From Cordylochernes scorpioides (Eukaryota; Arthropoda; Arachnida; Pseudoscorpiones; Chernetidae), in assembly GCA_030710605.1 (NCBI GenBank), contig CP092863.1, forward strand, positions 56,138,507 through 56,202,506: a stretch of DNA of 64,000 bases. The letters are read 5' to 3'. Position numbers and translations under genes: made by a program. Shown in pieces: positions 7,313 through 60,640 of this stretch. The notes beneath the pieces were generated by a model. The model saw nothing but the letters and a program-made list of their open reading frames with translations. It was not told the DNA's origin and made no database searches. How positions within the stretch are numbered: position 1 is the stretch's first letter; each line of letters begins with the position of its first letter.

Positions 7313-7688
7313 GGTAGACGTGACACTATAACATAGGTAATGTGGCTAGAAAGAGAATATACACACATGATTATTTACATATTAGCGGAATATGCTATGC
7401 AAATGGGGATTTTTCATTTGTTATGACTATTGTAATTAAAGAGATAGTAGGCAAATAGGACATTTGTATATTTGGAGTTTTGAGTCTATAGAGGAATATG
7501 TTAACGTAAATTACAGGATATGTGATATTTCAAAGAATTTTAGGAAATGATGCTATTACTGTAAGGCCAGGAGAGCACGATAGGCATCAGGAAGATCTAT
7601 TTTGCGGTTGATGCTATTATGTCTGTGAGATTCTATGGATTCGAGAACTAATCGCTGGTGCTGGTTATGAATGCGTCTGTAATGCGGT

Positions 7689-8460
7689 TCCTTGACTCAC
7701 AGAGTGTAGATTCCCATACAGCTTCATCCATAGTACAACTTACCAAGCTCTGCTTGAGCATGAACTGTTTCACATTCCAAGAAAATCATTACAGACAAAT
7801 TAAGGGCTCTCCAATGGGTAGCCCTCTTTCCTCTATTGTCGCAGAAGTCGCTATGTCCGAAATAGACAACTGGATCACCCGTACCCTCCCCATAGATATA
7901 CAAATATGGCGCCGTTATATTGATGACGTCTTTTGCTTATGCAGACACGGCCAGGAGAGCACCATACTTGCAGCCCTCAATAGTTTTAACCCCAACATCT
8001 CCTTCACTTTGGAAATAGAATCAAACCAGGTCATCCCATTTCTAGACATCCTAATAATACGTACCACATCCTCATTCCACACCACAGTCTACTACAAAAA
8101 AACAGTGTCCCCCCAGTTATACCCATTTCAATTCACACTGTCCCATTTCCCACAAAATCAACATAGTAAAAACTCTCACCAAAAGAATCTATACCCACTG
8201 TTCGCTCGATATATTTAAAGAAATAGAGAAAAATCTCATCATATCGCACCTCTCTATAGCATCGTTTCCGCTTGAATTCATCAACAGACATTCATATACA
8301 CCTGGCCCCCCCAACCACCCTAAAATTTACAGATCATTATGTTTCCTTCCCTACTCCCCCTCCTCAGCCGACATAGCCAGAAGCCTTAAAGCATACGGTA
8401 TCCGCACCTTATATAAAAACTCCCCCAACCTGCTCACATCCCTCCGTCACCCATATACTA
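7689..8460 (+). pseudogene. PLE reverse transcriptase, 5'-truncated
   Basis: The true homology starts about ten codons into the open frame that begins at 7658; the first residues come from the inverted arm. SPMGSPLSS and the catalytic YIDD (about 7920) are intact, followed by the PFLDIL block. A frameshift near 8120 moves the reading frame, which then continues with ISHKINIVKTLTKR-type thumb sequence to about 8460. A second shift lies at a run of seven C at 8470-8476. PLE RTs prime at target DNA and are related to telomerase. The missing fingers region and two frameshifts make this copy inactive. Confidence 0.9.
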
Positions 8461-8466
8461 AATCGC

Positions 8467-8811
8467 ATGCCCCCCCCTGATCCCCTCCATTCTGTTGGCG
8501 CGGTCTACTCTGTCTCGTGTGAGCAATGCTCTGCCACATACGTTGGCGAGACAGGCAGATCCGTCGCCATCAGAATGTCTGAGCATTCTAGAAATATCTC
8601 CAACCACGACACCAGGTCCCTTCTTTACCAGCACACACTCAATACCGGCCATACATTCAACACCAACCACCCCACCATACATTACAGACGCATTCATAAC
8701 CAGCACCAGCGATTAGTTCTCGAATCCATAGAATCTTACAGACATAATAGCATCAACCGCAAAATAGATCTTCCTGATGCCTATCGTGCTCTCCTGGCCT
8801 TACAGTAATAG
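8467..8811 (+). pseudogene. PLE GIY-YIG endonuclease domain
   Basis: The 113-residue open frame starts after the C-run frameshift. It shows VYSVSCEQC (the GIY half with the cysteine pair) followed by TYVGETGRS (the YIG half), then RMSEH and a long C-terminal helix region ending at a stop after 8808. In canonical PLEs this endonuclease nicks target DNA for RT priming. The domain itself appears complete, but it is cut off from the RT by the upstream shift. Confidence 0.85.
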
Positions 8812-9044
8812 CATCATTTCCTAAAATTCTTTGAAATATCACATATCCAGTAATTTACGTTAACATATTCCTCTATAGACTCAAAACTCCAAATATACAA
8901 ATGCCCTATTTGCCTACTATCTCTTTAATTACAATAGTCATAACAAATGAAAAATCCCCATTTGCATAGCATATTCCGCTAATATGTAAATAATTATGTG
9001 TGTATATTCTCTTTCTAGCCACATTACCTATGTTATAGTGTCAC

Positions 9045-9095
9045 GTCTACCACGCCTGTAGAAGGGGTTTTTACCCGAAAGCTCGCACCGTTATA
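9045..9095 (+). ncRNA. PLE hammerhead-like core, right arm
   Basis: CUGUAGA at 9056-9062 is followed by a stem II of GGG(G)/CCC with a U-rich loop, then GAAA at 9077-9080 and GCUCGCACCGUU. The spacing matches a hammerhead core, with A6 replaced by U. The related PLE tail at 23352-23396 keeps the consensus CUGAAGA. Stems I and III are not convincing by eye. Confidence 0.45.
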
Positions 9096-9157
9096 ATTTG
9101 TCTAATAAAGAAACTTTTCTTCTCTTATTCTGTTTTATCGCATAAGTGTTTATATAT

Positions 9158-9630: not shown

Positions 9631-12600
9631 TTAAAGTCGAAAACGTACGTGGCGTCCATAGCGAGTGGTGTAGCTACTTGTCTTCGGTGTAGTTTCCTCA
9701 GCACCGTCGGGCATAGGTGGCAGAATTGAAGAATCGTGGAAACTTTGAGGGGTGTTTTCTATGAATGCAGGCTTTAGTCTGTTGACAGAAATGACTTTGT
9801 TTTGGTCATTGATTTTAACTGTAAATGTCTTCGAAGATCTTGATACCACTGGAAATGGACCTTCGTATGGTGGAGATAACGCTCTTTTTACAAAATCTTT
9901 TCTTACAAAGACGTGTGAGCAGGTGTCTAAGTCTTTATGAGAAAACATATTATTTTGCTTTGTTTGTCTCGTTGGTTGAGGTCGAATTCTACTCATATAA
10001 TTCTTTAATTGAGTGGCAAAATTTGATGGATCGGGGTTTTTAAATTCTGAATTGGTTAGTAAATCAGCTGGAAGATTTAAAGTTGTCACGAAAACCATTT
10101 CTGCAGCAGTGCATTTCAGGTCTTCTTTGTAGGATGTTCTGATGCCTAGCAGTACTAGAGGCAAAGCATCTATCCAATTAATAGTATTTCCGCTTGCCAT
10201 GATTGCAGCTTTAATTTGACGATGCAAGCGTTCGACGAGACCGTTTGCTGCAGGGTTGTATGCCGTTGTTCGTATTCTGTTGGTGCCAATGAGTGAAGTG
10301 AGATCCTTGAAAAGATGTGATTCAAATTCACGACCTTGGTCAGTAGTTATTGTTGCTGGAACTCCGTATCTAGAAATCCAACCGCGAAAAAAAGCTTTTG
10401 CTACGCTTATTGCAGTTTTGTTCGAAATCGGAAAGGCTTCAGGCCATTTTGAATATCTGTCTATAGCAGTCAAAATGTGGGTACAATTTTCAGAATGGGG
10501 TAAGGGGCCTATTAAATCAAGATGAACGTGTTCAAAGCGAGTTGATGGGAGAGGGAAAATTCCGTGTTTTGTAATTGTATGCCTGTGAATTTTGCTTTTC
10601 TGACAATCTAAACAGGACTTTGACCAATGATTTATTGTTTGATTCATTTTGGGCCAAAAGTATTTCTGAGTTATTAGTTTTCTTGTTGCACGAATTCCTG
10701 GATGAGACAAATTATGGAGAGAATTAAAAATTTGTCGTCGGAAATTTTCAGGCACGAAAGGTCTGGGATTTCCAGTAGAAACATCGCAGTAAATTAATTT
10801 ATTGCAAAAAGGAACTTGTTGTTTTATTAATTTGATTGTTTGTGAAGAATTTGAATTATCAATGAGAGTTTTTAGTTCTTTGTCCTTTTCTTGAATTTCA
10901 GGGAATGCATTAAGATCTAGATTAACCTTCGTGTGATTGAAAGTTTCGATTTCAATTCTTGAAAGGGTATCAGCCACAATGTTTTCACTTCCCTTAACAT
11001 AGCGTATGTCCATGGAGAATTGTGAAAGATAGTTGAGATGACGTTCTTGACGAGGTGAACGTTCAGATTTTGATGTGAAGGCATACGTTAGAGGCTTGTG
11101 GTCTGTAAAAAGCATGAATGTTTTTCCATCAAGAAAGTATGAGAAATGCTTAACAGAGAGGAATGCAGCTAGGAGTTCCCGGTCGAATGCTGAGTATTTC
11201 GTTTCTGCTGGGGTTAGCTTTTTTGAAAAAAATGAAATTGGTTCCCATGCAGTGTCATTCAGTTGTTGGAGGACACCACCAACAGCAACGTTGGAGGCAT
11301 CAACCAGTACACTTAATGTAGAATTGGGTTGAGGGTAGTTTAAAAGTGTGTTTTCTGCAAGAGCATTTTTGATGTTTTGAAAAGCTTCTAATGTGTCTGA
11401 AGTCCAATTTAATGATGCATTGGGAGATTTAGTTTTTAGAAGTGAATAAAGCGGAGCTAAAATATGACTTGAATTTTTTATGAACCTGTGATAAAAATTT
11501 ACAAGACCAATAAATCTTTGGAGTTGATGGGTCGAATTAGGTTGAGGAAAATCTTTAACGATTCTTATTTTCTCAGGAAGAGGTTTTATTCCTTTGTTGT
11601 CAATGATGTGTCCAAGAAATTCTAATGAAGGTTTTCCGAAAACGCTTTTAGATATATTGACTGTTAATCCATGATCGGAAAGTCTTTTGAAGATTGTATG
11701 TAGATGTTGAATGTGATCATTTTCATTTTTACTGGCGATCAAAACGTCATCAATGTAAACGAAGACAAAATCTAGACCTTTTGTTACTTCATCCATGAAT
11801 CTTTGAAATGTTTGGCTTGCGTTTTTCAAACCAAAGTTCATGCGTGTGAATTCAAATAGACCAAATGGCGTAGTTATTGCCGTTTTGGGTATGTCTTCTT
11901 GGTTAATTGGAATATGGTGGTACGCCTTCACGAGATCTATTTTGCTGAAAATTGTACAGCCATGAAGGCTTTGGGTGAAATCCTGAATGTGCGGAATGGG
12001 GTAACAATCAGGTTGGGTCACAGCATTTAGTCTTCTGTAGTCGCCACATGGTCTCCAGTCTATAGAATTTTTCTTAGGGACTAGATGTAAAGGTGATGCC
12101 CATGCTCCGTCTCCTCTCTTGCATAAACCTAGTTCCATCATGTGCTCAAATTCTGATTTGGCAATTTTAAATTTTTCTGGATTCAGCCGTCTTGGTTTGG
12201 AGAATGTTGGTTGCCCTTTTGTAGTAATATGATGAGTGACTGAATGCTTGACTGGTGTGGAATATGATGGAGGCTTAGTTAGAGAGGGATAATGAGAGAG
12301 AATGTTCAAAAATTTGTCTTCATAGCTGTTTATTGAGCACTTTGGAGAAAGTGAGTTGAAATTTGTAATTGATGCACGCTTGCGTAGTTTCGTTAAAGAA
12401 TCAATTATAAACTTTCCTTTGATATCTGGAATTATTCCAAAGTGTTCCATAAAATCAGCTCCTAGAATGGCTTTGTTTGTGTCTGCTATTATGAATCTCC
12501 ATTTGAAATCTCTACGAAGACCTAGATCAAGATTAAGGAATCTTTCGCCATAAGTCTTGATAGGTGAATTGTTTGCTGCTGTGAGAGTAAATTTTGTTGG

Positions 12601-12852
12601 AACACGCCGTCTATCTTCAGGACGAGGAGGCAGGACACTGATCTCTGCACCTGTGTCAAGGAGAAAACTAATTTTGTTGCGGTAGTCAGTGATAAATAGA
12701 CGGTGGCTTTTATTATTGCTACAATCAGTAACCACCGGGCTTACTGATTGTTGTTGGAGTTTTCCTGCTGGTTCTTTGCTTTTTTGTTGAAAGTACAAGG
12801 TGAGATGCATTTTCTTGCATGGTGCTTGAATCGAAAATGATACCAGCACCAA
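9631..12852 (-). CDS. pol: gypsy Pol polyprotein (PR-RT-RH-IN), intact
   Basis: 1073 codons without interruption; the true N-terminus comes from frameshifting out of gag, so the listed ATG is nominal. Domains in order: aspartic protease LLDTGAEIS (DTGA 66-69); reverse transcriptase with YIDD at 366-369; RNase H starting near VDAS 517-520; integrase zinc finger H713, H717, C747, C750; integrase catalytic D779 (HLDL), D838 (TTDQG) and E874 (GLVERLH). All catalytic residues expected for the family are present. Pol copies the element's RNA to DNA in particles and integrates it. No chromodomain is evident at the C-terminus. Confidence 0.96.
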
Positions 12853-13520
12853 GAGCCATTTGGATTGTACTTTCTATAACTGTTTGGGGAAGATTTTCGA
12901 GATGAAGATGAGCTTCTGGATCTTGAACGAGGTATTCTTTCTTCCTTCTTGTTAAGGTCAATTTTCAATGCTGAAATTTCCGCACGCAAAGATGCCAGTT
13001 CCTTTTCTAAAGTCGAAGTACTTGAAGATGGTGAAGAAGTAATCTCCGTCACTCTATCAGCTAAATCTGCTAGAGAGTTTAGTGATGCTTGCTCTTGCGT
13101 TGTCAGAATTATTTGGATGTTTTTAGGTAAACGTTGCATCCAGAGCATTTTTAATGTTGTGTCACTGACGGCTTTGCTTTCTCCAATCAATTGTCTTAAG
13201 TGGCGTAATAATTGGCTAGGCAGTCTGTCTCCAAGTTCTTCTTGAGTCAACAATTGCTGTAGTTTTTTAAATTCGCTGTCAGCGGTACATTTAATTATGG
13301 CCTTCTTTAGCGCGTCGTATTTATTGTCTGGTGGAGGTGATATAATGAATTCACGTACCTCTATGGCAGTTGATGGAGATAAAAGTGAAATTAGATAAGA
13401 AAATTTGGTGTCATCATTTGTAATTGGACTTGGCTTGTTCAATAAAAATTGTGATTCCAATGTTATGAACCACAATTCTGGATCGTTTGGCCAAAATTCG
13501 GGTGCTTTAATTGAATCCAT
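12741..13520 (-). CDS. gag: gypsy Gag polyprotein
   Basis: 259 residues from the ATG at 13520, the first in frame after the 5' leader. The N-terminal half matches the arthropod-type gypsy Gag pattern ([12 protein letters not shown] near residue 10, a capsid-like core to about 170), then a Ser/Arg-rich basic stretch at about 195-215 and a C-terminal zinc-binding-like motif [18 protein letters not shown] at about 223-240. Gag assembles the virus-like particle and packages the RNA. The last 112 bp overlap pol in the -1 frame, so Gag-Pol is probably made by -1 frameshifting in the overlap; the slip site was not pinned down. Confidence 0.93.
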
Positions 13521-14002
13521 TTTGAGAATATATTGTATTTAAAAAATTATATGTCCTTAAGAGATATTAAAATTCTGATTATTATAATTATTAAAATTCA
13601 GAATTAAAATTTTATATTTGATTTTTTTATTTGATAAGAAAAAATATTTGAATATATTATCAAGTTATAATTTTTAAATTGTAAGAGTTATATATTATTT
13701 TTTAATTGCCAATTTAATGTGTATTTGAATTTATTTAATATTTATTTCTTAAAATTATATTTGATATCTGATTTGTTTTTAAGTTGAAAATTTGCCTTGA
13801 ATTAAATACCAAACGATGTACGTTTTCGTTGTTTTTAAATATTGCGAAATATGTTAAAATTTTTGTTTTAAATATAAATATTTAATATGTATGTCATAAA
13901 TATTTATAATTTGATATTATGAGTATTTTTCACTTTTGATCGAATTGAAATTCTTGTTTGATTGCTTGCAAATGTTCGTTAAAGTTTACCGGCTCACCAT
14001 TT

Positions 14003-14453: not shown

Positions 14454-14770
14454 ATATATTGTAATTATAAAATATTTAAATATATATAATATAAAATGCA
14501 GAAATATTTTTCCAAAACCATCTTATTTTATAAGTGACAAACATTTTCTTATATATAAAAATATATTTACAATAAATAAATTTAAAAGTAAAACTACCCT
14601 TACGTCAAAATAGGCATAAAATCTATACGAAATTTATTGATCGTCGTAGTAGATTTGAAACATTATTTCCATTGTATATTTATCATTACAAGTTTTTTAA
14701 AAGATTACCAAACATGCTGATTCTCTTCCTCTCAATTATCTGAATTAATTTATATATATATTAAAAATAA
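14454..14770. other. AT-rich spacer, nothing recognised
   Basis: The sequence is AT-rich and has no repeat partner or coding pattern I could find. Confidence 0.6.
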
Positions 14771-15010
14771 TGAAGGCATATCCTGACCAAAAGCGCATGT
14801 GCTTTTTAGATGGCAGAGCGCCAATCTCTTGATAATGGGTTGGCTAAATATCAAGGAGCAAGTTAAATAAACGTTTAGTTTATTTTTGCTCCACTAAATG
14901 GCGCTCTGGCATTAAAAAAATACATGTGCTTTTGGTCAGGATATGCCTTCATTATTGTTAATATCAACATCTGACCTTTTTATTATTTATTTTTTCTATT
15001 GTTTTCTCAT
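14771..15010. repeat. snapback copy of the ATATCCTGACC repeat family
   Basis: The sequence from 14771 (GGCATATCCTGACC...CATGTGCTTT...GGCAGAGCGCCA) is mirrored by 14890-14953 in inverted orientation. Between the arms is the TTGATAATGGGTTGG...ATATCAAGGAGC segment. The arms belong to the same family as the ribozyme repeats at 27.0-32.8 kb, but the hammerhead core is deleted here. After the right arm comes the family tail AATATCAACATCTGACC. Confidence 0.8.
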
Positions 15011-15171: not shown

Positions 15172-16145
15172 CGAGGTATGTTCAAAAAGTATCACGACTT
15201 TTGTGTTTTTTAAAAAATTATTTATTTATTCATTAATACCTATTTTGTCCCCTTCAAAGTAATCCCCATGAGATATTATACACTTGTGCCAACGGTTTTT
15301 CCAATCTTCGAAGCACTTCAAAAAATCATTTTTTAAAATCTTTTTCAGCTCCTCCTTCGATGCCGTCTTTATCTCGTCAAGCGTAGCGTAACATCGTCCT
15401 TTCATGGGCCTCTTCAGTTTAGGGAATAAGAAAAAGTCACAGGGGGCCAGTTCTGGGGAATACGGTGGCTGCGGCATCATTAGTGTGTTGTTTTTTGCCA
15501 AAAAGTCGCGCACAAGCAACGATGTGTGAGCAGGGGCGTTATCGTGGTGCAAAAGCCAATTTTTGTTTTTCCACAAATCCGGGCGTTTCTGGCGGATTGC
15601 TTCGCGCAAATTGCGCATAACTTGCAGGTAATATTCCTTATTGACCGTTCTACCCTGTGGCAAGAACTCATGATGCACCACGCCCCCACGCCGTTTCCAC
15701 GTCATAACCATAAAACCACGCTTCGTCACCAGTTATGACCCTCAGGAGCAAATTTGGGTCGTCGCGGACAGAGTCCAACATCACATTAGCAATGTTCATG
15801 CGATGCTGTTTTTGGTACCACCGATAAACGTTGCTTTGGTCGAAGGTAGCTTCTCCGTATTCCACAGTCAACATTCGGAATGCATCCGTGCACTTAATTT
15901 CGTTTTTCACACAAAATTTGATACAGGTTCTTTGATCCATTTTTTAATAGGTAAAAATCGAAGACGATCCAAAACACTTGCAAGCAAAGCAGCTGTCAAC
16001 AATTAAGTGAACATTCAAAATGGCCGAGCTTGTCGGCATTAAGTGAGAGACATGAGTACCAACATAAAGCCACAAAAAGATCGAAATTCGAATATACGTA
16101 ACCCGCGAAAATTCAAAATTCGCGATACTTTTTGAACACACCTCG
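15172..16145 (-). mobile_element. internally deleted mariner transposon
   Basis: 974 bp element with terminal inverted repeats of about 28 bp (CGAGGTRTGTTCAAAAAGTA at each end) and TA duplications at 15170-15171 and 16146-16147. The uninterrupted paralogous site at about 39588 (TTTTGTATGATATGC) supports the boundaries. Full-length mariners are about 1.3 kb. The shortfall matches two internal transposase deletions, so this is a nonautonomous copy that could only be moved in trans. Confidence 0.93.
15226..15940 (-). pseudogene. mariner transposase, two internal deletions
   Basis: The N-terminal piece starts with ATG at 15940 (MDQRTCIKFCVK...VYRWYQK), giving the first helix-turn-helix. About 80 residues, including the second helix-turn-helix, are missing before HRMNIANVML. 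The first catalytic Asp is in TGDEAWFYGYD. About 35 more residues and the frame are lost before GGVVHHEFLPQG. The C-terminal piece keeps HHDNAPAH (second Asp) and YSPELAPCDFFLFP (third Asp), the DD34D pattern of mariners. All three catalytic Asp are retained but the polypeptide is split over two frames. Confidence 0.92.
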
Positions 16146-22618: not shown

Positions 22619-23339
22619 CTAATTTATGTGATCAAAACAATAAATGATATTTATATAGAAAAACTTTACTCAGCAAGAGAGAGAAAGAAGCCATTTTGTC
22701 CCAATTAAGTAGATCGTTAAACAAATTTTGGCGAAAATAGCTGAAAATGTGCAAAATATTTTGAACTAGGGCAAAAGGAAATGAAGTTTTAAGAATTATG
22801 CAGAATGCAATTTCATAAATCGATATTTTAAAGCAAAAAAAAAATTAAATTCTTCACCCGAATTCCGGCCCTTTAGTAATCACATGGTATTTAATCAACT
22901 AAAGACAGAGGTGTGGTTTGGCGAAAGGTTTCTTTTTTGATGGGCAAAATATATACGCTTCTGCCAACAACTTAATGTCTTCATTTTAACATCTAATTTA
23001 TATACATACACCATTATCGTTTAATGATGTTTGAAACTATTAGTATGTCTGTGGTGAATTTTTATTTTCTCTTCAAAAAACAATTCCCGTATCTCCGAAG
23101 CGATAAAACAATTATGGAAGGGCCTGGCTCCTCAGTGTTTAAACAACCCTCCAAACGGATTTGCCAGTTTAATCGACCACACTGCTCTCTAATATTCCTA
23201 TTGGCTGTGTTGCTGATAAATCAGACACGGAAAAGAGAATATTGGTTGGACGGTAGTTGGGCGAACTATGGGCAAAATATTTGTAACAGAGAAGAGAGAT
23301 TAGAAAGAAGGAATCATATATCGCCGCAACTCTTTTTTT
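22619..23339. other. unassigned spacer
   Basis: No gene is recognised. The longest reading frame (23024-23353, 109 codons) has no family pattern and overlaps the PLE tail. Confidence 0.5.
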
Positions 23340-23351
23340 ATTATTATTATT

Positions 23352-23396
23352 AACGCGGTTGAGGAAGCTTTCGGGCAAGCCCTTCTTCAGCTAATT
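23352..23396 (-). ncRNA. PLE hammerhead-like core
   Basis: On the minus strand CUGAAGA (complement of 23384-23390) is followed by a GGGC/GCCC stem II and GAAA (complement of 23369-23372), then GCUUCCUC. The core matches the hammerhead consensus CUGANGA...GAAA. Stem III may be the short AG/CU helix closing before CUC. Stem I is weak. Its position in the 3' region agrees with known PLE hammerheads. Confidence 0.55.
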
Positions 23397-23639
23397 ATAG
23401 TGTACAAACAAGAAGAGATTATATATCGTTTTTAATATAAAATAAAATAAAAGAAAATAAATTTACCACGCCCCTATCGCCCTCGTTTCAATAGCACCGC
23501 GTGGCCACGTCATGTCTGATCCTAACTTCAAATGTAATATGGTACAAAAATATCTTAAAAGAAATTTACGTAATCGAATAAATATAAAGAATCAACTATA
23601 AACAGTTCAAAGGATTTAGTGGAGACTTTTTGAAGATTT

Positions 23640-24587
23640 TTAGGATAGAAGGGGAACGTACTGTGATGGCAACTGTATACTTTTGTTTAATGGTTTAGGG
23701 TGCTTCATGGTTTCTATTGCTTCAAGAATGAGTCTTTGGGTTTTAGTTTTGGCATTTGTATGGAGGATTCTGGTATTATTGAAGTCTGGAGTGTGTCCGG
23801 TTTCTCTGACGTGGTCAACAATTAAGGAGTTTGGGTTTAGTTTAGAGATGTTTCTTTGGTGTTTTTTGATTCTGATTTTGCAGTTGAGGCAGGGAATTTG
23901 GTAAACTAAATCTTTTTTCTGTTTCTGGTCGGTGCTTTTGGTGATTGGGTTTCTTAGAATCGAGCCCATGGAAGGTGAACCTCTGAAGATGGTTTTTATG
24001 CCAAAACTTTTGAGTTTGCGGGCTATTGTAATTGTAGATTCTGTATATGGTAAGTAACAGGTGGAGATGTACTGATTGGAGTCATTTCTTGGAGTCCCTG
24101 GTTTAAATCTATTTCTTTTAATGAAAGGAAGCGGGTATCCAGATTTAAGAAGCTGGTTTTCGATAGACTTAAGTTCTTTATTGTATTCTATTTTTGATGA
24201 ACAGTGAGTGAAAGCTCTTTTCGTCAAGGTACGTACAACTGTTATTTTGTGGGAGATGGGAGAATTGGAGGCAAAGTGTAGGTACTGCGTTGGGGAGGTA
24301 GGTTTTCTATAAACCTTTGTTGTAAAACCGGTTCTATTTCTGGTAAATAAAATGTCAAGGAATGGCAGGCTTCCTTTATTTTCTTTTTCTATTGTAAATT
24401 GAATAGATGATTTGAAGCTATTGAGGGTTTCTAGGATGTGATTTTCACTGTTTTCTGTGATTATGCAAAAAATATCATCAACGTATCTTGACCAGATTAA
24501 TATTTCGTTGGGTTTTACTTCAGTGATCCATGAGTCAATGGTGGAGAGAACTATTTCGGCTAGAATTGTAGACAGTGGGCATCCCAT
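23640..24587 (-). pseudogene. PLE RT-endonuclease ORF fragment
   Basis: 315 open codons. MGCPLS at the start, RYVDDIF (catalytic YVDD) at about residues 35-41, PFLDILF near 70, a thumb with ISHKITVVRTLTKR near 110, then the endonuclease. The GIY half is VYQIPCLNC near residue 229, but it runs straight into KIRIKKHQR. Compared with the first PLE, about 12 residues that include the YIG half are missing in frame, so the endonuclease should be inactive. The rest of the domain (HVRETGHTPDF..., ILEAIE) is normal, and the frame stays open to a natural stop. Confidence 0.9.
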
Positions 24588-24604
24588 ATATTAATTTCTA
24601 TATT

Positions 24605-24880
24605 TATCAGGAAGCCTCTTGGAACTAAGCTTTGATTATTGAAGTACAGCCTGCACCACGCTTATGAGGGTCAACAGCCCGAAACGCGTTCGTGGTTGGT
24701 TTATCTTGATTTATCAAGTAATTGGGTTGGCCAAATATCATGAAACAAGTAATATAAACGTTTAGTTTATTTTTATTCCACTAGATCGTGCGCTACCATT
24801 AGAAATGTTCAGAAGAGCGTTAAGAATATGCAATTTTTGTTTCCAATATCAAAACCTGATTTTTTTTATTTTTCCTATAT
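24605..24880 (+). repeat. diverged single ribozyme-repeat unit
   Basis: Same family as the 27.0-32.8 kb array. CAGGAAGCC at 24609 corresponds to the array segment upstream of the ribozyme. The decayed hammerhead is at 24656-24695, then TTGATTTATCAAG, ATTGGGTTGGCCAAATATCA, a degraded AGATNGNGCGCT arm, and the tail ATATCAAAACCTGAT. It stands alone, next to and divergent from the second PLE. Confidence 0.8.
24656..24695 (+). ncRNA. decayed hammerhead ribozyme
   Basis: CCACG, CUUAUGA, GGG-loop-CCC, GAAA, CGCGUU, CGUGG. Stem I is five perfect pairs, with an outer AGCC/GGUU helix beyond an internal loop. Stem II is GGG/CCC instead of the array's GCGC/GCGC, a compensatory change. The core has one substitution, G5 to U (CUUAUGA for CUGAUGA), expected to abolish cleavage. 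Confidence 0.75.
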
Positions 24881-27013
24881 AAAAATGTGAATTTTTATGC
24901 TTCAAGTAATGAGTAATGTTTACAGTAAACCATTAAGAAATAACCGATTGGCGTAAATTAAATAATAAGCGTGTCATCTGTTAATGAATATTTCAACCAT
25001 TAGTGCGATATATATATATATATTTAAATATAACAATTTGTTTGCGATCATTTCTGCGAAGGTAAAATTATTGCAAGGGCCTGCTCTTATCTGCAGTGAG
25101 ATTTATAAGTTGCTATATATGCAATTAAATAGTTTTATAAAATTATGAAATGTCTTAATTTATTTTTTTGCCCAAAAATGAGTCCGTCTTAAATACAAGC
25201 TTGTAGTCAAGTGGAAGGTTTCTAAGCGGCGCGTGCTTATACTTAACTCGTATCTAAAGAGAGCTATGTAGGGAATTCGTGTTTACTTCCTCCGACATCT
25301 AGAGAAAATCAGTACCAAGATTTATATAGTTCTCAATTTTACGTCTCTCAGGATATTCCCTAAAAGAAAAACAGAGAGAGCAAGAAGAAGTCTAAATGAG
25401 CCACTTACCCAACAAACTCAAATATCCGCAATCCACAAAAAGAGGTCTAATTCTCCTAATTACGAAACTCTACTGGGAAATCTCTGAAGCTCCGCCATCT
25501 TTCTTTTTTTTTCCAAACACCAACTTGAGAAGAAACTCCGTCCGCTAACAACTTGAATTTAGTTTCCTTACGTTCTTTCTAGGGTACGATGACTTGTGGC
25601 CATTGTGAGACTTCCAGATTGGGGTTTATTGAGGTCCCATCTGGGCTAACCTATCTACACTGTATAATGAAAATCTTTCTTTTAGTTTAAGAAGTCTTCC
25701 TATTTTAATTTGTTTGATTCATTGGCCGCTCTGACACATAAACACATGTGCATCAATAGTAATAATAAAAATTATAAACCAAGTACACTTTTAATGAATG
25801 AGCAATTGCACAATAAACTGATCTCTTTTGATTGCGTCGGTTTGCGAACATAACCATCGCATCAGCTTCCGTTATAACACTTAATATCAAATATAAGGCA
25901 TTGGCACGACGCCATTTATATATAAGAGAAATGGAACAATTAATCACGATATCAAGTTTGGGGTTATGTATCTCATATTCCTGATAGGTTTCGATTTTAC
26001 GAGGTCCAACTAAAAGTTCCATGTATTAAAAATATTAACCTAGAAGATTGACCTGTTCCACGTGAAATAGAGAATTTCAATATTCCCAACTCAAAATGCC
26101 AAACTCTTGATTTTGAAGATCGAATTCAACTTTTAAAAAAATCAACAAAAAGACCGACAAAAAGATTGCCAACTCTCTCTCTTTCTGAGACCACTGTCGT
26201 GTGCACATAAAGCCATGACAAATCGAATGAACTGCGCCTGAGTCACCACCAATGGCCCTGGTAAACAGGGTTGAGTCAATTGTAAACACTATGTTTAAAA
26301 ACTTGTTAGATCCTTGTATAGTGATGTTTAGAATTAATAAGAATTATTTGGTGGTCAAATCTTGACACGAATTTAAATTTTAAAATATATTTGGAAGAGA
26401 AAGAAATACAGCAAGACCATCAAAAATGTATTGTTTTAAATGGGATTTCTCTCTCCATATTATAATTACCAACATATTTATTTTTCGGAAAAATGTGTTA
26501 ATCAAAATGTAAATATCATATTACTTTCTATATATTTCCATCCATGAATTGCAAATCCATTTTAAAATGTTCTTATGCATTTGATAAGACGATAGAGATT
26601 GCTATACAAGATGTAACAAATGAGTTTCGGAACTAAAGCTATAAAAATAATTATGAATTTATATGCTGATTACAATATTATATAGAATAAAGGATTGGCT
26701 TTTCTACACAATGATATCATTCTATAGAGACACGAATAGATTAACGAAGTACTCCCAATATATCGCAGTAGTAATTTGTCTTATTTTAAAATAAAATTTG
26801 GTACTGAATGGTTGGATCTAGGTGAATCTAGGCGGCTAATGCCTTTTAAATATCATTTTTTGACAATAGGCATTTTCTTTTATAAATACACACACAAAAG
26901 TCAGGTGATTACATTTTCAATTATATGTTTCTTAGAGCACATCATAATCTTATATTAAAAAACGAAAGAAAAAATAAAAGATAAATAGATCAGGTGTTGA
27001 AATTAATATTAAA
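24881..27013. other. AT-rich, no recognised feature
   Basis: About 2.1 kb with short ORFs only (up to 89 codons, none with family motifs). It includes a (TA)n tract at about 25012 and a pyrimidine tract at 25500. It may be unique intergenic DNA. Confidence 0.5.
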
Positions 27014-27152
27014 AATAGCATATCCTGACCAGGAGCACATGTGATTTACAGAAGGCAGAGCGCCATCTGGTGGAACAGAAATCAACTAAACATTGATTTA
27101 GCCTGTTCCCTGATATTTGGCAAACCCAATTTCTTGATAAATCAAGAAAAGC

Positions 27153-27195
27153 CATTCACGAACGCGTTTCGCGCTTTTGGCGCTCGTCAGCGTGG
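27153..27195 (-). ncRNA. hammerhead ribozyme, unit 1
   Basis: Minus strand: CCACG-CUGACGA-GCGC-CAAAA-GCGC-GAAA-CGCG-UU-CGUG. All conserved core bases are present (C3 U4 G5 A6 G8 A9, G12 A13 A14). Stem I is CACG/CGUG, then an internal loop, then outer AGCC/GGCU. Stem II is GCGC/GCGC with a CAAAA loop. Stem III is the minimal A-U, C-G helix. Predicted cleavage follows GUU, between 27161 and 27160. Confidence 0.88.
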
Positions 27196-27502
27196 AGTTG
27201 GCTGAACCACTGCGACCAAAAAAATATTTTTTGGTCCCAGTGGCTTCCTGAAAAATCCAGAAATGGGTATTTAAGGCCAAACTTGCGTAAATACGCTTAG
27301 CACATTAAAAAACGAAATAAAAAATAAAAGATAAAAAGATCAGGTGTTGAAATCAATATTAAAAATGGCATATCCTGACCAGGAGCACATGTGCTTTACA
27401 GAAGTCAGAGCGCCATCTGCTGGAACAGAAATTAACTAAAAATTGATTTAGCCTGTTCCCTGATATTTGGCCAATCCAATTTCTTGATAAATCAAGAAAA
27501 GC

Positions 27503-27545
27503 CTTTCACGAACGCGTTTCGCGCTTTTGGCGCTCGTCAGCGTGG
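27503..27545 (-). ncRNA. hammerhead ribozyme, unit 2
   Basis: Core and stems as in unit 1. The outer stem I here is AGCU/GGCU with one G-U pair. Predicted cleavage lies between 27511 and 27510. Confidence 0.88.
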
Positions 27546-27619
27546 AGTTAGCTGAACCACTGCGACCAAAAAATATTTTTGGTCCCAGTGGTTTCCTGAA
27601 AAACCAGTTAATGGGTATT

Positions 27620-27813
27620 TGTTGAAAAAGGAGGAAGATAGAAGAGGGCACTGATCACCGGAGGATTTTATTGAACGCTCACGGTGAGATAGCACAACTA
27701 ACTAAAACTAACAAAGATATCCATTTATATATACATTGCAACACACCACAGAGTTGCAGGTCACTGGTCAAAATAATTATATCATGAAATCCGAGAGAAT
27801 TGCCATTTTAACA
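27620..27813 (-). repeat. copia 3' LTR
   Basis: 194 bp partner LTR. The polypurine tract lies just inside it at about 27814-27826. Confidence 0.95.
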
Positions 27814-27836
27814 CTTCCCCTCAATTCATCAGATTT

Positions 27837-29843
27837 CTACATTCCAAATCCAGTGACGTGTTTTTCATACAAAAACCTTGGTAGGCCCTTAGTAAGGATG
27901 TCGGCAACATTTTCTTGGGTTGGTGTGTGGACGACCTCGACAAGTCCATCGCTGCAAATGCTTCTGATGTAATGCCATTTGATGTCAATGTGTTTAGTTC
28001 TGGCATGATAAACCGGATTTCTCGCCAGCTGTTGAGCACCCTGGTTATCCGTCTTCAGAACAGTCGGTCCATTCAGCAATTCACCAAATCCCATCTCATC
28101 CAACAGCGCTCTAAGATAGACTGCCTCCTTTCCTGCTTCACAAAGTGCGATGTACTCAGATTCTGTGCTCGAAAGAGTGACAGTCTGCTGCTTCTTCGAT
28201 TCCCAGGCTATTGGACCTCTTGCCAAGAAGTAAACAATTCCCGTATGAGATTTTCTATCCACGAGGTTTCCACCCCAATCAGCGTCGACATAACCATGAA
28301 GAGCCTCATTAGATTTCCTGTAGGTAATCCTCAAACATGAGGTGCCTTTCAAATAGCGGAGGACACGCTTGGCAGCATTCCAGTGCTGTCTCCTAGGATC
28401 ATTACTGAACTGTCCCAAAGCACTAACTGCATAGGCTATATCGGGCCTTGTCGACACTGAGAGATATATCAATGATCCAATCAGTGATTGGTATTCTACC
28501 TTTTTCACTGGCTCATTCTCACCTTCTATAGATGAAATTTTTGTTAACTTGGAGTTCGAGTCCAAGGGTGTAGAAATAGGCTTTGCCTCTTTCATCCTAT
28601 ATTTCGCCAGAAGTTCTTCAATATATCTCTCTTGATCTATGGATATTGAACCATCCTCTTTCATTTGTATCCTTATACCCAGGCAACAATTTATCCCTCC
28701 AAGATCCTTTATTTTGAATATCCTTTTCATACTTTCTTTAAAGGATTTCAACGTGCCTTCTCTTTCAGCCGCAATTATCAGATCATCAACATAGATTGCC
28801 ACCAGGAGAATACCTTCATCATGCTTGATATAGACACAATTGTCAGATTGAAGTTGCTTCAGTCCCAAATTCTTCAATTCATTGTCGAGCCTTTCATGCC
28901 AAACTATTCCAGCTTGTTTCAGCCCATAAATTGCCTTTTTGAGTCGACATACTCTCTCTGGATATTTTCTTGAGACAAAGTTTTCCGGCTGTGTCATATA
29001 AATTTCTTTAATTTCTCCATTCAAATAAGCAGATTGAACGTCCATCTGATGGAGTATCAAGTTGTATTCAACAGCCAAGGCTAAAAACATTCTAATAGTA
29101 CTTTGGCGCACTACTGGGGCAAAAGTTTCCTCGTAGTCTATTCCGTACTGCTGTGAATAGCCTTTTGCTACCAGGCGAGCCTTATGGCGCTCAACAGAAC
29201 CATCACTATTGCATTTCGTTTTGAATACCCATTTGCTTCCTATGATGTTTCGATTTATAGGGGGATCAACCAATTCCCAAGTTTTGTTCTCAATCAAGGA
29301 ACCAAACTCTTCCTCCATTGCTTTCTTCCAAAAATAAGAATCCCTTCCTGACAGCGCTTCCTCTGCGTCTTTTGGATCTGGCAAGTATTTCGCCTCTAGA
29401 AGTTCTTGCGTTGACAGATTGGCTGTAGGGTACTCCTTTCTTGGTCGGCCAGGTTTTCCTGTTCTAATATATCTTGGTCGTCCTCTTCCTCTTCTTGAAA
29501 TGACCACTTCACTTTCTGACGGCTCGTCCACTAAATCAGACATCTCTAAATCCGATTCACTTTCAATTTCAGTTCGTGATTCAACTTCGGACGTGCTTCC
29601 CTTTTCTTCAACTAGAGGAATTTCCTTGACAAAAGGATCTTTTTGTGGACTAACATCAATTTCAATGACTTCATTCCGAATTCTTGATAATTCTGGTTCA
29701 ATAAAACGTACATCTCTACTTTTTATAATTGTACGTGTACCAGGCTTCCAAAGTCTGTATGCCTTAGCTTCTGTGAAATAGCCTATTAACTTGTATTCCT
29801 CACTGCGAGGTGCGAATTTAGATCTATTCGGCCTATTATTCAA
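27837..29843 (-). pseudogene. copia reverse transcriptase-RNase H
   Basis: 668 open codons and intact as far as visible. It starts in the integrase tail (NRSKFAPRSEEYKLIGYF), then a Ser/Glu-rich linker, then the RVT_2-type polymerase: KTWELVDPP, WVFKTK, RHKARLVAKGYSQ, QMDVQSAYLNGEI, YGLKQAG, and catalytic IYVDDLIIA at about residue 350. RNase H follows (VDADWGGN, SSTESEYIALCEA, TDNQGAQQLA, RTKHIDIKWHYIR). It lacks its own start and is expressed only as part of Gag-Pol, which is broken upstream. Confidence 0.93.
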
Positions 29844-30214
29844 TGAGAAACTACAGGTTTTCTTTTGTTAAACAATTCATGTGGAGTTTTACATTCGTTA
29901 AGCTTCGGGCATCTATTTCTGATATAAGTTGATGTGTGTATCAATTCATCCCATAAAGTTTCAGGTAAATCACCTTCGATCATGAAGCACCTAGTCATAT
30001 CTAGTAGAGTTCTATTCGCTCTTTCAGCTACACCGTTCTGTTGAGGTGTATATTCGACAGAGAGTTGATGTCCAATGCCCTCTTCTTCTAGATAATTCTT
30101 AAATTCTTTGCTAAGGTATTCAGGTGCATTATCACTTCTAATACATTTCAACCTTTTTTTCGGTTTGCTTCTCAGCGTATCTCTTATATATTCTGAACAC
30201 TTTAAATACTTCAC
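29840..30214 (-). pseudogene. copia integrase middle segment
   Basis: 124 codons in a different frame from the upstream part. It has SDNAPEYLSKEF (second Asp) and PQQNGVAERANRT (catalytic Glu). It ends at VVSH, where about 15 residues of the following conserved block are deleted together with the frame. The integrase cannot be made as one chain. Confidence 0.9.
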
Positions 30215-30218
30215 TTCT

Positions 30219-31722
30219 TTATTTCATTATAAATGTGAAGATAAATCCTGAGAAGTCATCAATAAATGTTGAAAAATAAAGGGCGCCACCCAATGATTTT
30301 GTTCTCATGGGACCACAAATGTCAGTATGAACCAGCTTCAGTGGTTCTCTTGATCTCGTAAAAGACTCTTTCTGAAAAGGTAGCCTTGTTTGTTTACCTT
30401 TCAAACAAACTTCACAGGTAAATTTTTTAACATCAAAATTTGGCAGGCCGTAAACAATATTTTGCATTCTTAGCTTTTTGAGATCTTGCAAATTTAAATG
30501 GCCAAATCTACTATGCCATTTTTCGTAATTTTTCTCTCCAGCTATGCAAATTTCTCTTGTCGCTAATGCCTTAGGACAATTGATTTGACTTAAGATGTAA
30601 AGTCCATTCCTTTCATAGGCCTGTATGCAAATTTTTGTATGCAAATTCACTATTTCAGCCTTTCTGTACTTGAAATTTACAATATTATATTTGCCCGTAC
30701 ACCTACTGATGGAAAACAAATTGCCATTTAATTCAGGAACAAATAATACGTCTTCCAAGGATAAGATTACTGGTCCGTTTTTACCCGAACATTCCAATTC
30801 TACCTTCCCCTTTCCCAGAGGTTCAATGAATTTACCATTGGCCAGTGTAATTTTCACTGGTGCAGTCTCCTCAAAATGAACGAATGAGTCTCTTGAGCTG
30901 CACATGTGGACAGTTGCGCCACTATCCAGACACCATTCATTTGCGCCAAGTTTGCTCAAATATTTTGTCCCAAAGGACGCACCCATTTCATTTTTAGGAT
31001 TCCTGGACTTTCTTTTTCTGCAGTCGGCAGCTTTATGTCCCTTTTTTCCACAGAAGTGGCAACTAAATGGGAATCCCTTTGGCTTTGGTTTTGATGTGCT
31101 GGGCAAATTCTTTCTTTCTGGATTTCCAAGGAAAGCTTGTTCGGTATTAGTTGTGCCAGATTGAGTTTGTCTAATTTCCTCCTCCAGCATTTTCACTTTT
31201 AAAGTTTCAAAGCTAGGAAGTTCGTCCCTAGTTTCTATCGCTGTTCTAAATCCTTCATAACTCTCTGGAAGGCTACATAATAAAAGGATAGAAAGGAAGT
31301 CCTCTGGGACTTGAGCATCCATTTCACTCAGCCTGTCAGCTAAACTGCTAAACTTGTTAAGGTAGTCCTGCAGCCTGTCATAAGGATTCATCTTCAAGAG
31401 GATCAACTGTTTCGTAAGGAAAACCTTAGTTGCAGGCCCTTTTGGCTGATGCACTTTATTTAAATTTTTCCATGCTTCTGCAGAAGTTGTGCATTTTTTA
31501 ACATGTATTATTTCTGGAGGGCTCAAACTTAGGACTATAGTAGCCAGCGCCTTCTGGTCGTTCTTCTCCCATTCGTTGGATTCTACCTCGGCTTCAGGCT
31601 TGATTCTTATGCTATTTGCATATTCCTAAAGGTCGGAATGGATAAGAATCATTTTCATTTGCATCTTCCATGTTTCAAAATTTTCAGAATTCAATTTTTC
31701 TATTTGATAAAGGCTTGACATT
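30219..31722 (-). pseudogene. copia Gag-protease-integrase N-terminal part
   Basis: The natural start is the ATG at about 31720 (MSSLYQIEKLN), but a TAG replaces a Trp codon at about residue 33, so the open stretch begins at 31526. Then come a UBN2-type Gag core, the CCHC knuckle CHFCGKKGHKAADC, the aspartic protease WCLDSGATVHMC (DSGA), the integrase zinc finger (HSRFGHLN...CEVCLKG) and the start of the integrase core with HTDICGP (first Asp) and FIDDFS. A stop and frameshift at about 30219 interrupt it inside the integrase. Confidence 0.92.
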
Positions 31723-31762
31723 TTGAATAATTTCTTGATGCTACAATTTCTTTAAAGTAATC

Positions 31763-31776
31763 CTGGGCCCATAACC
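31763..31776 (-). promoter_or_regulatory. copia primer-binding site (initiator tRNA-Met half)
   Basis: The plus strand reads CTGGGCCCATAACC, the sense of the initiator tRNA-Met anticodon stem-loop with its CAT anticodon. It directly abuts the 5' LTR. This is the internal priming mode described for copia-type elements of insects. Confidence 0.88.
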
Positions 31777-31970
31777 TGTTGAAAAAGGAGGAAGATAGGA
31801 GAGGGCACTGATCACCGGAGGATTTTATTGAACGGTCACGGTGAGATAGCACAACTAACTAAAACTAACAAAGATATCCATTTATATATACATTGCAACA
31901 CACCACAGAGTAACAGGTCACTGGTCAAAATAATTATATCATGAAATCCGAGAGAATTGCCCTTTTAACA
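31777..31970 (-). repeat. copia 5' LTR
   Basis: 194 bp. On the minus strand it begins TGTTAAAAGGG and ends before the primer-binding site at 31763-31776. Confidence 0.95.
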
Positions 31971-32206
31971 GTATTTAAGGCCAAACTTGCGTAAATACGC
32001 TTAGCATATTAAAAAACGAAAGAAAAAAAAAAAGATAAAAAGATCAGGTGTTGAAATCAATATTAAAAATGGCATATCCTGACCAGAAGCACATGTGCTT
32101 TACAGAAGGCAGAGCGCCATCTGGTGGAACAGAAATCAACTAAACATTGATTTAGCCTGTTCCCTGATATTTGGCCAACCCAATTTCTTGATAAATCAAG
32201 AAAAGC

Positions 32207-32249
32207 CATTCACGAACGCGTTTCGCGCTTTTGGCGCTCGTCAGCGTGG
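32207..32249 (-). ncRNA. hammerhead ribozyme, unit 3
   Basis: Same core and stems as unit 1, with AGCC/GGCU outer stem I. Unit 3 is cut off at about 32266 by the inversion junction, leaving the ribozyme complete. Confidence 0.88.
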
Positions 32250-32584
32250 AGTTGGCTGAACCACTGACCATTCGTGGATGGCTTTTCCTGATTTATCAAG
32301 AAATTGGGTTGGCCAAATATCAGGGAACAGGCTAAATCATTGTTTAGTTGATTTCTGTTCCACCAGATGGCGCTCTGCCTTCTGTAAAGCACATGTGCTC
32401 CTGGTCAGGATATGCCATTTTTAATATTGATTTCAACACCTGATCTTTTTATCTTTTATTTTTTCTTTCGTCTTTTAATGTGCTAAACGTATTTACGCAA
32501 GTTTGGCCTTAAATACCCATTACCTGGTTTTTCAGGAAGCCACTGGGACCAAAAATATTTTTGGTCGCAGTGGTTCAGCTAACT

Positions 32585-32627
32585 CCACGCTGACGAGCGC
32601 CAAAAGCGCGAAACGCGTTCGTGAATG
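32585..32627 (+). ncRNA. hammerhead ribozyme, inverted unit
   Basis: CUGACGA at 32590-32596, stem II 32597-32609, GAAA at 32610-32613, predicted cleavage after U at 32619. Stem I is CACG (32586-32589) with CGUG (32620-32623). Sequence is otherwise that of the minus-strand copies, so the array encodes ribozymes on both strands. Confidence 0.88.
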
Positions 32628-32775
32628 GCTTTTCTTGATTTATCAAGAAATTGGGTTGGCCAAATATCAGTGAACAGGCTAAATCATTGTTTAGTTGATT
32701 TCTGTTCCACCAGATGGCGCTCTGCCTTCTGTAAAGCACATGTGCTCCTGGTCAGGATATGCCATTTTTAATAAT

Positions 32776-33100
32776 AATCGTATATATTCGAATGAACGTT
32801 TTTGTTTCGAAATAATTATATTTTATTTATTTATTACAAAACACACGCTATATCCTATGTGGATATTTGTATGTAAATGTTTAATCTATTTTATGTACAT
32901 AGTTTTTAAATATATATACAAATTATTTATAGTTTTAGAGAGAGAGTGAAAGCTATTCAAATTTACATTTTGGAGCAATAAATTATACAAGAAACAAAGA
33001 TTATTTACATACATATTATCAAAAGTCCAATATATATTTAGAATTACAACCACTAAACCAGTGGCAGAAATATACTAATTAACACTAGAAATTTCAATTC
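32776..33100. other. AT-rich spacer
   Basis: No recognised feature. Confidence 0.5.
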
Positions 33101-55755: not shown

Positions 55756-55985
55756 ACATGATTTAGCTTGTTCCAACCCACTAGATGGCGCTCTGCCATC
55801 TAAATTGTTCATGTGAGTGGTCAAGAAATTCCATTTTTGTTTTTAATAAATATATTTATATATATATGAAAAATGAAAGAAAAAATAAAATATAAAAAGA
55901 TCAGGTGTTGAAATCAAAAATAAAAATGGCATATCCTGACCAGGAGCACATGTGCTTTACAGAAGGCAGAACGCCATCTCTGGTG
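55756..55985. repeat. fragments of the ribozyme-repeat family, no ribozyme
   Basis: CCACTAGATGGCGCTCTGCC at 55778 is the inverted arm. 55893-55985 (GATCAGGTGTTGAAATC, GGCATATCCTGACC, CATGTGCTTTACAGAAGGCA) is the direct arm with its tail. The copy is broken by repeat S at 56000. Confidence 0.8.
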
Positions 55986-55999
55986 GATTTATATATATA

Positions 56000-60089: not shown

Positions 60090-60640
60090 ATTAGACATAT
60101 CATGACCACAAACATGAGCGTTTTTTTAAATATAATCAATTTATTTTTATATCTAAAATACGCTCGTGTTAGTGGTCAGGATATACCTAATTTACTTTTA
60201 ATATCAACACCTGCCCTTTTTTATTATTCCCCCTATTTTTCAAATTATTTTTTTCGCATACATATACAGATCTGTATATGTATGTGTATTAAAAACAAGA
60301 GGAATTCCCTCACAGCACACATAACTATTTTAGATGGTAGAGTGCCATATATTTATATATATTATTGGCAAATAATTATTTTTTATTTAATCCAATATAT
60401 GCTTCTAAGTAAGAATGTGTAAGAACACATAAAATATTTTCTTCATTTCTAAGTTTTTATTAGGAATTCTTTAAAGAAAAAATCTCATCCCCGGAAGCCT
60501 GATATTTTTACCTAAATATTTTAATTTTTTTAAATTTATTATTACAGAAGCACGAAGTCTATCAGACTTTTTTTGCTATATTATAATTATTTACATATAT
60601 ATCTTTAATTATTTACACAATGAATTAGTAGTGATTTATA
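60090..60640. repeat. snapback copy of the ATATCCTGACC family and spacer
   Basis: 60093-60190 forms an inverted pair (ACATATCATGACCAC...GTGGTCAGGATATACC) with the family tail ATATCAACACCTGCCC. The rest is AT-rich with no feature. Confidence 0.65.

What the first reader, a model, noticed from the sequence alone, without database searches (positions are those of the whole stretch)
27021..32763. Tandem ~350 bp repeat encoding canonical hammerhead ribozymes (retrozyme-like array)
Seen: four copies of CCACG-CUGACGA-GCGC-CAAAA-GCGC-GAAA-CGCGUU-CGUG, one per ~350 bp unit, with every invariant core base, a 4-pair stem I plus an outer AGCC/GGCU helix beyond an internal loop, a 4-pair stem II and a minimal stem III. 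Known: tandem type I hammerheads in repeats of a few hundred bp occur in schistosome, cave cricket and newt satellites and in metazoan retrozymes, which form circular RNAs. Inference: this array is such an element, and its transcripts self-cleave to ~350 nt monomers that may circularise and spread. The family also occurs dispersed at 14.8, 24.6, 55.8 and 60.1 kb.
Basis: partly seen in the sequence, partly recalled or inferred. Interest (0 to 1): 0.92.

Follow-up and report, generated by a model that had tools for sequence, protein, structure and literature searches.

The report
Hammerhead retrozyme with Penelope-type insertion ends
A short non-coding jumping element that carries a self-cutting RNA motif occurs in thousands of copies in this arthropod genome, and the shape of its insertions suggests that it spreads using the enzyme of another kind of jumping element, Penelope.

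Summary
The motif is real. Four exact hammerhead cores lie in the window (none in 100 shuffles). The genome holds 4,466 exact 24-mer cores and 21,720 with stem II left free; stem II covaries. It fits a metazoan retrozyme: 350-nt unit, 40% GC, type I hammerhead.

The "tandem array" is one insertion rather than a satellite. It has a 12-bp target duplication (one mismatch), a minus-strand left arm and a plus-strand right arm, and was later split by a 4.35-kb Copia-type element.

Sampled genome copies share this anatomy. Outer edges are RNA 3' ends at unit position ~185 (short) or ~233-237 (long). All 17 two-armed insertions with both ends classifiable, of 20 two-armed, have one short and one long end. 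In a second subfamily 4 of 6 pairs were resolved and all 4 agree. Resident Penelope-like elements (PLEs) do the same in 9 of 9 resolved pairs, 4 more unresolved. Arms of one insertion share derived variants (23 against a mean of 2.5 with arms swapped).

Best reading: PLE machinery mobilises this retrozyme, so far a hypothesis in print. Self-cleavage and circular RNA are untested; no partner PLE was identified.

The parts
26944..26955 (.). left target-site duplication ATAATCTTATAT (last two letters overlap the element edge)
   Evidence: 11 of 12 letters equal to 32774-32785
26954..27619 (-). left arm, outer part: long 3' end (unit position 237) at its left edge, then a full 350-bp unit and part of a third
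   Evidence: BLAST of the unit
27150..27203 (-). hammerhead copy 1 (stem I, core, stem II, minimal stem III, outer helix)
   Evidence: flanks counted from the 30-mer
27500..27553 (-). hammerhead copy 2, 350 bp from copy 1
27620..31970 (-). Copia-type LTR element nested in the left arm (not part of the retrozyme); 5-bp duplication GTATT at 27615-27619 and 31971-31975; LTRs 97.4% identical over 194 bp
   Evidence: pol and gag-type open frames on the minus strand
31971..32266 (-). left arm, inner part, 5'-truncated at the central junction
32204..32257 (-). hammerhead copy 3
32267..32773 (+). right arm, 5'-truncated near unit position 27-29 at the head-to-head junction, ending at the short 3' end (unit position 184-185)
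32577..32630 (+). hammerhead copy 4
32774..32785 (.). right target-site duplication ATAATCGTATAT
14758..15005 (.). older two-armed insertion of the family (79-82% to the family sequence): minus arm 14758-14823 with a short end, plus arm 14836-15005 with a long end; no ribozyme
24602..24880 (+). older single arm; hammerhead core broken (CTTATGA); start and end approximate, alignment itself 24666-24866
55778..55987 (.). two truncated neighbours, plus (55778-55838, 76%) then minus (55869-55987, 94%), read as separate insertions because they differ in age
60173..60221 (+). fragment (unit 160-208)

Best explanation
The locus is one insertion of a non-autonomous, non-coding retroelement of the metazoan retrozyme kind, placed by PLE-type machinery. 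Proposed cycle. (1) Transcripts of multi-unit copies are cut by the type I hammerhead into 350-nt monomers and ligated into circles (inferred from the family, not shown here). Helix III is A-U closing a palindromic CGCG loop, so cutting is probably better as a dimer, as published for amphibian retrozymes. (2) A PLE protein cuts both strands of an AT-rich site and starts reverse transcription on the retrozyme RNA from each cut strand, at two fixed internal sites: one strand at unit position ~185, the other at ~233-237 (inferred from the ends of genomic copies). (3) Copying may run several times round the RNA, giving tandem 350-bp units. (4) The two cDNAs are joined head-to-head with variable 5' truncation, leaving an AT-rich target duplication, 12 bp here. 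Shown by sequence: ends, arm orientation, target duplications, tandem units, shared variants of the arms, and the same anatomy in resident PLEs. Not shown: cleavage, circles, the identity of the partner PLE.
For: 41 insertions examined (40 consecutive C1 loci from the listing plus the window): 20 two-armed, 21 single-armed. Of the 20, 17 have both ends classed, and 17 of 17 are one short plus one long, none short/short or long/long; single arms end short 12, long 6, other 3. The older 14.8-kb copy agrees. A second subfamily, not used to form the rule: 4 of 6 pairs resolved, 4 of 4 agree. Resident PLEs with GIY-YIG domain: the same rule with a 32-nt tail in 8 of 8 resolved family-B pairs and one family-C pair (L027). 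These PLEs carry their own minimal hammerhead 3' of the ORF. Close neighbours run minus-then-plus in 11 cases and plus-then-minus in 0, both for hammerhead cores (100 listed, within 1 kb) and for PLE endonuclease hits (146 listed, within 6 kb). Published PLE hallmarks match: two internal RT start sites bounding a 'tail', cutting and extension of both strands at AT-rich DNA (PMC11167929, parts 1-2 of 4); tail optionally on one of two inverted pLTRs, head-to-head order, 8-10 bp duplications (PMC3846280, passages and Discussion). One template: arms of the same insertion share 23 of 125 derived variants, 9 found in no other locus, against a mean of 2.5 (max 8) in 500 swaps among 18 loci. In L041 the five full units (four right, one left) are identical at all 258 compared positions. 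Stem II keeps pairing: 83 of 100 listed copies have all four pairs, shuffled mean 65, max 73 of 2000.
Against: No cleavage or expression data. No PLE with matching end sequence was identified; retrozyme tail (~50 nt) and PLE-B tail (32 nt) differ in length and sequence. Three two-armed loci have an end outside both classes (L067 211/185, L071 185/323, L079 221/172). In the window array itself the units differ at non-diagnostic positions by 2.4-3.2%, about the between-locus value of 2.5%, so for this locus a single template rests only on 4 shared variants. Gene conversion between arms could also make them alike. The target-duplication statistic is diluted by AT-rich flanks: 23 of 41 have a match of 8 bp or more against 23% in the mismatched-flank control. 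PMC11167929 saw no difference of RT start site between top and bottom strands in vitro, and HHR mutants still inserted. The 11:0 orientation counts are for adjacent listed hits; in the window one plus-minus neighbour pair exists at 55.8 kb, read as two insertions. My test for a common stem-loop at the RT start sites failed.
Confidence: 0.82

Rival explanations
1. Satellite DNA: the units spread by unequal crossing-over and the ribozyme is a passenger.
For: 350-bp period, tandem copies, earlier hammerhead repeats were called satellites.
Against: Sampled copies are dispersed, mostly one or two partial units per arm, with fixed 3' ends, head-to-head arms and a 12-bp target duplication here.
Confidence: 0.04
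2. The unit is a reduced PLE (a solo pseudo-LTR) that moves as linear PLE RNA does; the hammerhead matters little and no circle is needed.
For: The anatomy is that of PLEs, which also carry hammerheads. In vitro a PLE inserts RNA with hammerhead mutants (PMC11167929). Arms often start anywhere in the unit.
Against: Stem II covaries across subfamilies while the core letters stay, though the search pattern fixed the core. Multi-unit arms of identical 350-bp units (L041) are easily made on a circle. The hammerhead has two-part stem I and longer stem II than the PLE form.
Confidence: 0.25
3. LINE-mobilised SINE-like element; the inverted arms are twin-priming products.
For: PMC7229834 names LINEs or PLEs as candidates. 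5' truncation and target duplications also fit LINEs.
Against: In twin priming only one edge is the RNA 3' end (recalled); here both outer edges are 3' ends, at two fixed sites, as in resident PLEs.
Confidence: 0.04
4. Foldback or MITE-like DNA transposon whose inverted arms are terminal inverted repeats.
For: Inverted arms with flanking duplications.
Against: The two termini are never the same in the 17 classed pairs; 21 of 41 insertions have only one arm; arms are 5'-truncated at varied points.
Confidence: 0.02
5. The hammerhead letters are real but the ribozyme is inactive in this host.
For: No Rfam hit at gathering. Predicted lowest-energy folds of the 54-nt motif are not the active fold: -19.7 against -16.3 kcal/mol for the active fold without helix III. 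Core decays like loop II.
Against: Core exact in thousands of copies; stem II covariation; amphibian relatives with an equally weak helix III cut as dimers (PMC7229834).
Confidence: 0.12

Closest known systems
Metazoan non-LTR retrozymes (Cervera & de la Pena 2020, PMC7229834)
   Same: Type I hammerhead, ~350-bp tandem-capable non-coding unit, 40% GC, thousands of copies, target duplications longer than 4 bp, co-resident PLEs with minimal hammerheads. Helix III of one pair plus palindromic tetraloop as described there for HHR_Amex1.
   Different: Head-to-head arms with paired short and long 3' ends are not mentioned in the parts I read (1-4 of 6). Sequence itself could not be compared.
Penelope-like elements (PMC3846280, PMC11167929)
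   Same: Head-to-head arms, an extra tail on one of the two, AT-rich targets, short target duplications, a hammerhead upstream of the 3' end sites.
   Different: No reverse transcriptase or GIY-YIG open frame; unit 350 bp; the tail is ~50 nt rather than 30-40; canonical instead of minimal hammerhead.
Newt and axolotl hammerhead repeats (described in PMC7229834)
   Same: 330-350-bp units; weak helix III with palindromic loop, which cuts better as a dimer.
   Different: Arthropod host, unrelated unit sequence as far as could be judged; mode of insertion there not checked.
pDo500 satellite of Dolichopoda cave crickets (PMC2837043, listing and abstract start only)
   Same: Insect-type host, hammerhead in a repeat.
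   Different: Repeat length and array form differ by name and recall; not compared in sequence.

Membership tests
metazoan non-LTR retrozyme | type I hammerhead with complete core | tested here: met
   Rfam HH9 E 1.7e-4 on 263 bp but below gathering
metazoan non-LTR retrozyme | unit of 170-400 nt able to occur in tandem | tested here: met
   350-bp spacing
metazoan non-LTR retrozyme | low GC, no protein coding, no LTR/PBS/PPT | tested here: met
   GC 40%, longest stop-free run 95 codons over a tripled unit; LTR features not seen, PBS/PPT not specifically searched
metazoan non-LTR retrozyme | target duplications longer than 4 bp | tested here: met
   12 bp with one mismatch in the window; other loci
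metazoan non-LTR retrozyme | contacts between loops 1 and 2 | not tested
   stem I internal loop is present; tertiary contacts were not modelled
metazoan non-LTR retrozyme | expressed as linear and circular RNA; self-cleavage | not testable with these tools
   no RNA data
Penelope-like element (membership) | encodes RT and, in EN-containing families, GIY-YIG endonuclease | tested here: not met
   no open frame over 95 codons in the unit; so it is not filed as a PLE
PLE-type insertion mechanism (works like) | head-to-head arms, tail on one arm only | tested here: met
   17 of 17 classed pairs, 4 of 4 resolved in a second subfamily; PLE controls 9 of 9 resolved
PLE-type insertion mechanism (works like) | AT-rich target and short duplication | tested here: met
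   flanks 80% AT; 23 of 41 with match of 8 bp or more against 23% in control
PLE-type insertion mechanism (works like) | RT start within a defined RNA stem-loop | tested here: inconclusive
   7-pair stems bracket the short end in retrozyme, PLE-B and PLE-C, but shuffles do so in 42-49%

The most novel reading that the evidence does not exclude
Both halves of an insertion are started on one and the same circular retrozyme RNA by a PLE dimer, in a coordinated way: one target strand always primes at the short site and the other at the long site, never both at the same. The 'tail' of Penelope elements would then be the visible mark of an obligatory two-site, two-strand initiation, and the retrozyme a 350-nt template that carries only what the PLE enzyme needs.
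Probability: 0.4. Interest if true: 0.8.

Novelty: new member of a known kind. Interest (0 to 1): 0.62.

Why it matters
Which reverse transcriptase spreads the hammerhead-carrying retrozymes of animals is stated in print as open, with LINEs or PLEs as candidates (PMC7229834; repeated in PMC7761336 and PMC11722881, passages). The insertion anatomy here points to PLEs and gives measurable predictions: fixed start positions, one short and one long end, and a template to put into the published in vitro PLE assay. If the one-short-one-long rule is general, it also constrains how PLEs insert. A combined search for retrozyme and 'head-to-head' found 0 papers, and a five-term search found one review without this; the library holds open-licence papers only.

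Tried and rejected
Chimeric insertion: a PLE (23.3-24.59 kb, minus) abuts the 24.6-kb retrozyme arm (plus). Both outer ends look long and I saw no duplication, so I do not claim that one event made both.

Common stem-loop at RT start sites: stems exist but are not better than shuffles.

Retrozyme copies beside PLEs: 2 of 30 fetched PLE loci hold a retrozyme copy (L021, L036). The window has copies at 5 places in 64 kb, so this is not evidence of linkage.

Selection on the core: not shown. Core and loop II change at about 2% per site in the listed copies. The covariation controls are mixed: three measures exceed all 500 shuffles, but the number of pairs with changes on both sides (2 against 1.9) and of further pair types (8 against 6.3) do not; one C-G to G-C subfamily change carries much of the signal.

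One search used a wrongly spaced pattern and is not used. The COX1 search found one nuclear fragment only. The host is called an arthropod from at least 150 scored Chitin_bind_4 matches and TTAGG repeats; species not determined.

Rows dropped: segments under 60 aligned letters (from all sums) and under 85% identity (from the family sequence); also unit columns 185-238, 298-335 (about these bounds) because of T-runs and a hairpin. PLE pairs unresolved and not counted: L088/L089, L093/L025, L019, L033. Subfamily pairs unresolved: L100/L101, L102/L103. L063 is a complex locus that was counted by its outer ends.
Full report
WHAT IS THERE. Read on the sense strand, each is stem I, CTGACGA, stem II GCGC/GCGC with loop CAAAA, GAAA, CGCG, T, T. 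A15.1-U16.1 closes a palindromic CGCG loop, a very weak helix III. Rfam does not call it at gathering level; with permissive settings on 263 bp it matches Hammerhead_HH9 with E 1.7e-4.

ONE INSERTION, NOT A SATELLITE. Three cores lie on the minus strand and one on the plus strand. The left arm runs from 26954 to 32266 and is interrupted by a Copia-type element at 27620-31970 with its own 5-bp duplication GTATT and LTRs 97.4% identical over 194 bp. The right arm runs from 32267 to 32773. A 12-letter sequence, ATAATCTTATAT at 26944-26955 and ATAATCGTATAT at 32774-32785, flanks the whole. The left edge ends at unit position 237 and the right edge at 184, counting from the C of CTGACGA.

GENOME-WIDE FAMILY. 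The window lies in a 2.62-Gb, 24-contig genome. The exact 24-mer core occurs 2180 times forward and 2286 times reverse, 0 in the reversed control. With stem II free and GAAACGCGTT fixed there are 10,809 and 10,911, control 1 and 0. The host is an arthropod by its cuticle-protein exons and TTAGG repeats.

THE TWO-END RULE. I took 40 loci, consecutive in the listing, with 20 long and 20 short stretches, plus the window. An automatic reading gives 20 two-armed and 21 one-armed insertions. Seventeen two-armed ones have both ends in a class, and all 17 pair one short end (180-190) with one long end (226-245). If each end were chosen independently with equal odds, 17 of 17 would have probability 2^-17, about 8e-6. 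Three two-armed loci have at least one end in neither class. The single arms end short in 12, long in 6 and elsewhere in 3. The old copy at 14.8 kb also has one short and one long end. To test the rule on material not used to form it, I fetched only the end stretches of six close minus-plus pairs of a second subfamily (loop CAACA): four resolved, all four mixed; two were not resolved on the left side.

THE SAME RULE IN RESIDENT PLEs. GIY-YIG hits (146 listed) include PLEs with RT followed by the endonuclease (family B). About 300 nt after the ORF they carry their own minimal hammerhead, CTC-CTGACGA-GGACAAAAGCTTTTTGTC-GAAA-CGTC-GAG. Their copies end at two places 32 nt apart. Where both arms could be read, one ends short and one long: L080/L081, L082/L083, L084/L085, L086/L087, L090/L091, L032/L092, L010 and L012, 8 of 8; four more were unresolved. 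In family C, L027 shows the same, with the long end defined by only two copies. Neighbouring hits run minus-then-plus 11 times and plus-then-minus never, among 100 listed cores (within 1 kb; 14 further neighbours are same-strand) and among 146 listed endonuclease hits (within 6 kb). This order, the tail and the duplications are published PLE hallmarks (PMC3846280, passages and Discussion; PMC11167929, parts 1-2 of 4).

ONE TEMPLATE. If both arms come from one RNA they should share derived letters. Over 18 loci with both arms, 23 of 125 non-majority letters are common to left and right arm, 9 of them found in no other locus. Swapping right arms among loci 500 times gives a mean of 2.5 and a maximum of 8. 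In L041 the four full right-arm units and the full left-arm unit are identical at the 258 compared positions, partial units differ by at most one or two. Mean difference at non-diagnostic positions is 0.8% within an arm, 1.4% between arms of a locus and 2.5% between loci; L041 contributes many of the within-locus pairs. The window array is less clean: its units differ by 2.4-3.2%, and its arms share 4 variants, 3 private. Age or gene conversion may explain either pattern.

RIBOZYME. Among the first 100 listed copies with free stem II, 83 keep all four pairs, against 65 on average and 73 at most in 2000 shuffles. A C-G to G-C double change marks a subfamily. On 31 distinct sequences the paired cells, double-changed cells and covariation score exceed all 500 shuffles, two other measures do not. 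Invariant core letters changed in 21 of 100 listed copies with intact stems (22 substitutions in 1000 sites, counted by eye), like loop II (10 in 500): single copies decay neutrally, as expected if most are dead on arrival. In the model the active fold of the family motif lies 3.4 kcal/mol above the predicted minimum. By analogy with amphibian retrozymes I expect cutting mainly as dimers.

CONCLUSION. What is new here is the insertion anatomy: it ties a metazoan retrozyme to PLE-type integration, which the literature I saw treats as likely but unproven. I file it as a new member of the metazoan retrozymes that is moved as PLEs are. It is not itself a PLE, since it codes for nothing.

Noticed in passing
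window 27620-31970: Copia-type LTR element, antisense, nested in the retrozyme arm; LTRs 97.4% identical over 194 bp, 5-bp duplication GTATT; coding region split over several frames.
   Followed up: partly
window 7652-9120 (+) and 23300-24590 (-): Two PLE remnants with RT and GIY-YIG-type stretches and hammerhead-like 3' motifs (CTGTAGA or CTGAAGA with GAAAGC).
   Followed up: partly
L009, L011, L014-L018, L021, L024, L029-L031: A second class of GIY-YIG loci; in the frames read (L009, L014, L015) the endonuclease lies upstream of the RT. This permuted order recalls the Naiad-type PLEs (recalled, not tested).
   Followed up: no
unit position 118-131; window 32360, 32707 (+) and two sites on the minus strand of the array: CCACCAGATGGCGC in each near-complete unit fits the CTCF core consensus (recalled). 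Thousands of copies could spread such sites.
   Followed up: no
L034 from 2168 on: The PLE right arm is followed by a ~131-bp tandem repeat.
   Followed up: no
window 9631-13538 and 15226-15732: A long Gypsy-type pol frame (1080 aa) and a mariner-like transposase fragment, named by eye from the translations.
   Followed up: no
window 24590-24602: The 5' end of the minus-strand PLE remnant abuts the plus-strand retrozyme arm within about 14 bp; whether one event made both is unresolved.
   Followed up: partly
L036 2187-2220: A retrozyme arm begins in the AT repeat directly behind the long end of a PLE, so the two kinds share target sites.
   Followed up: no
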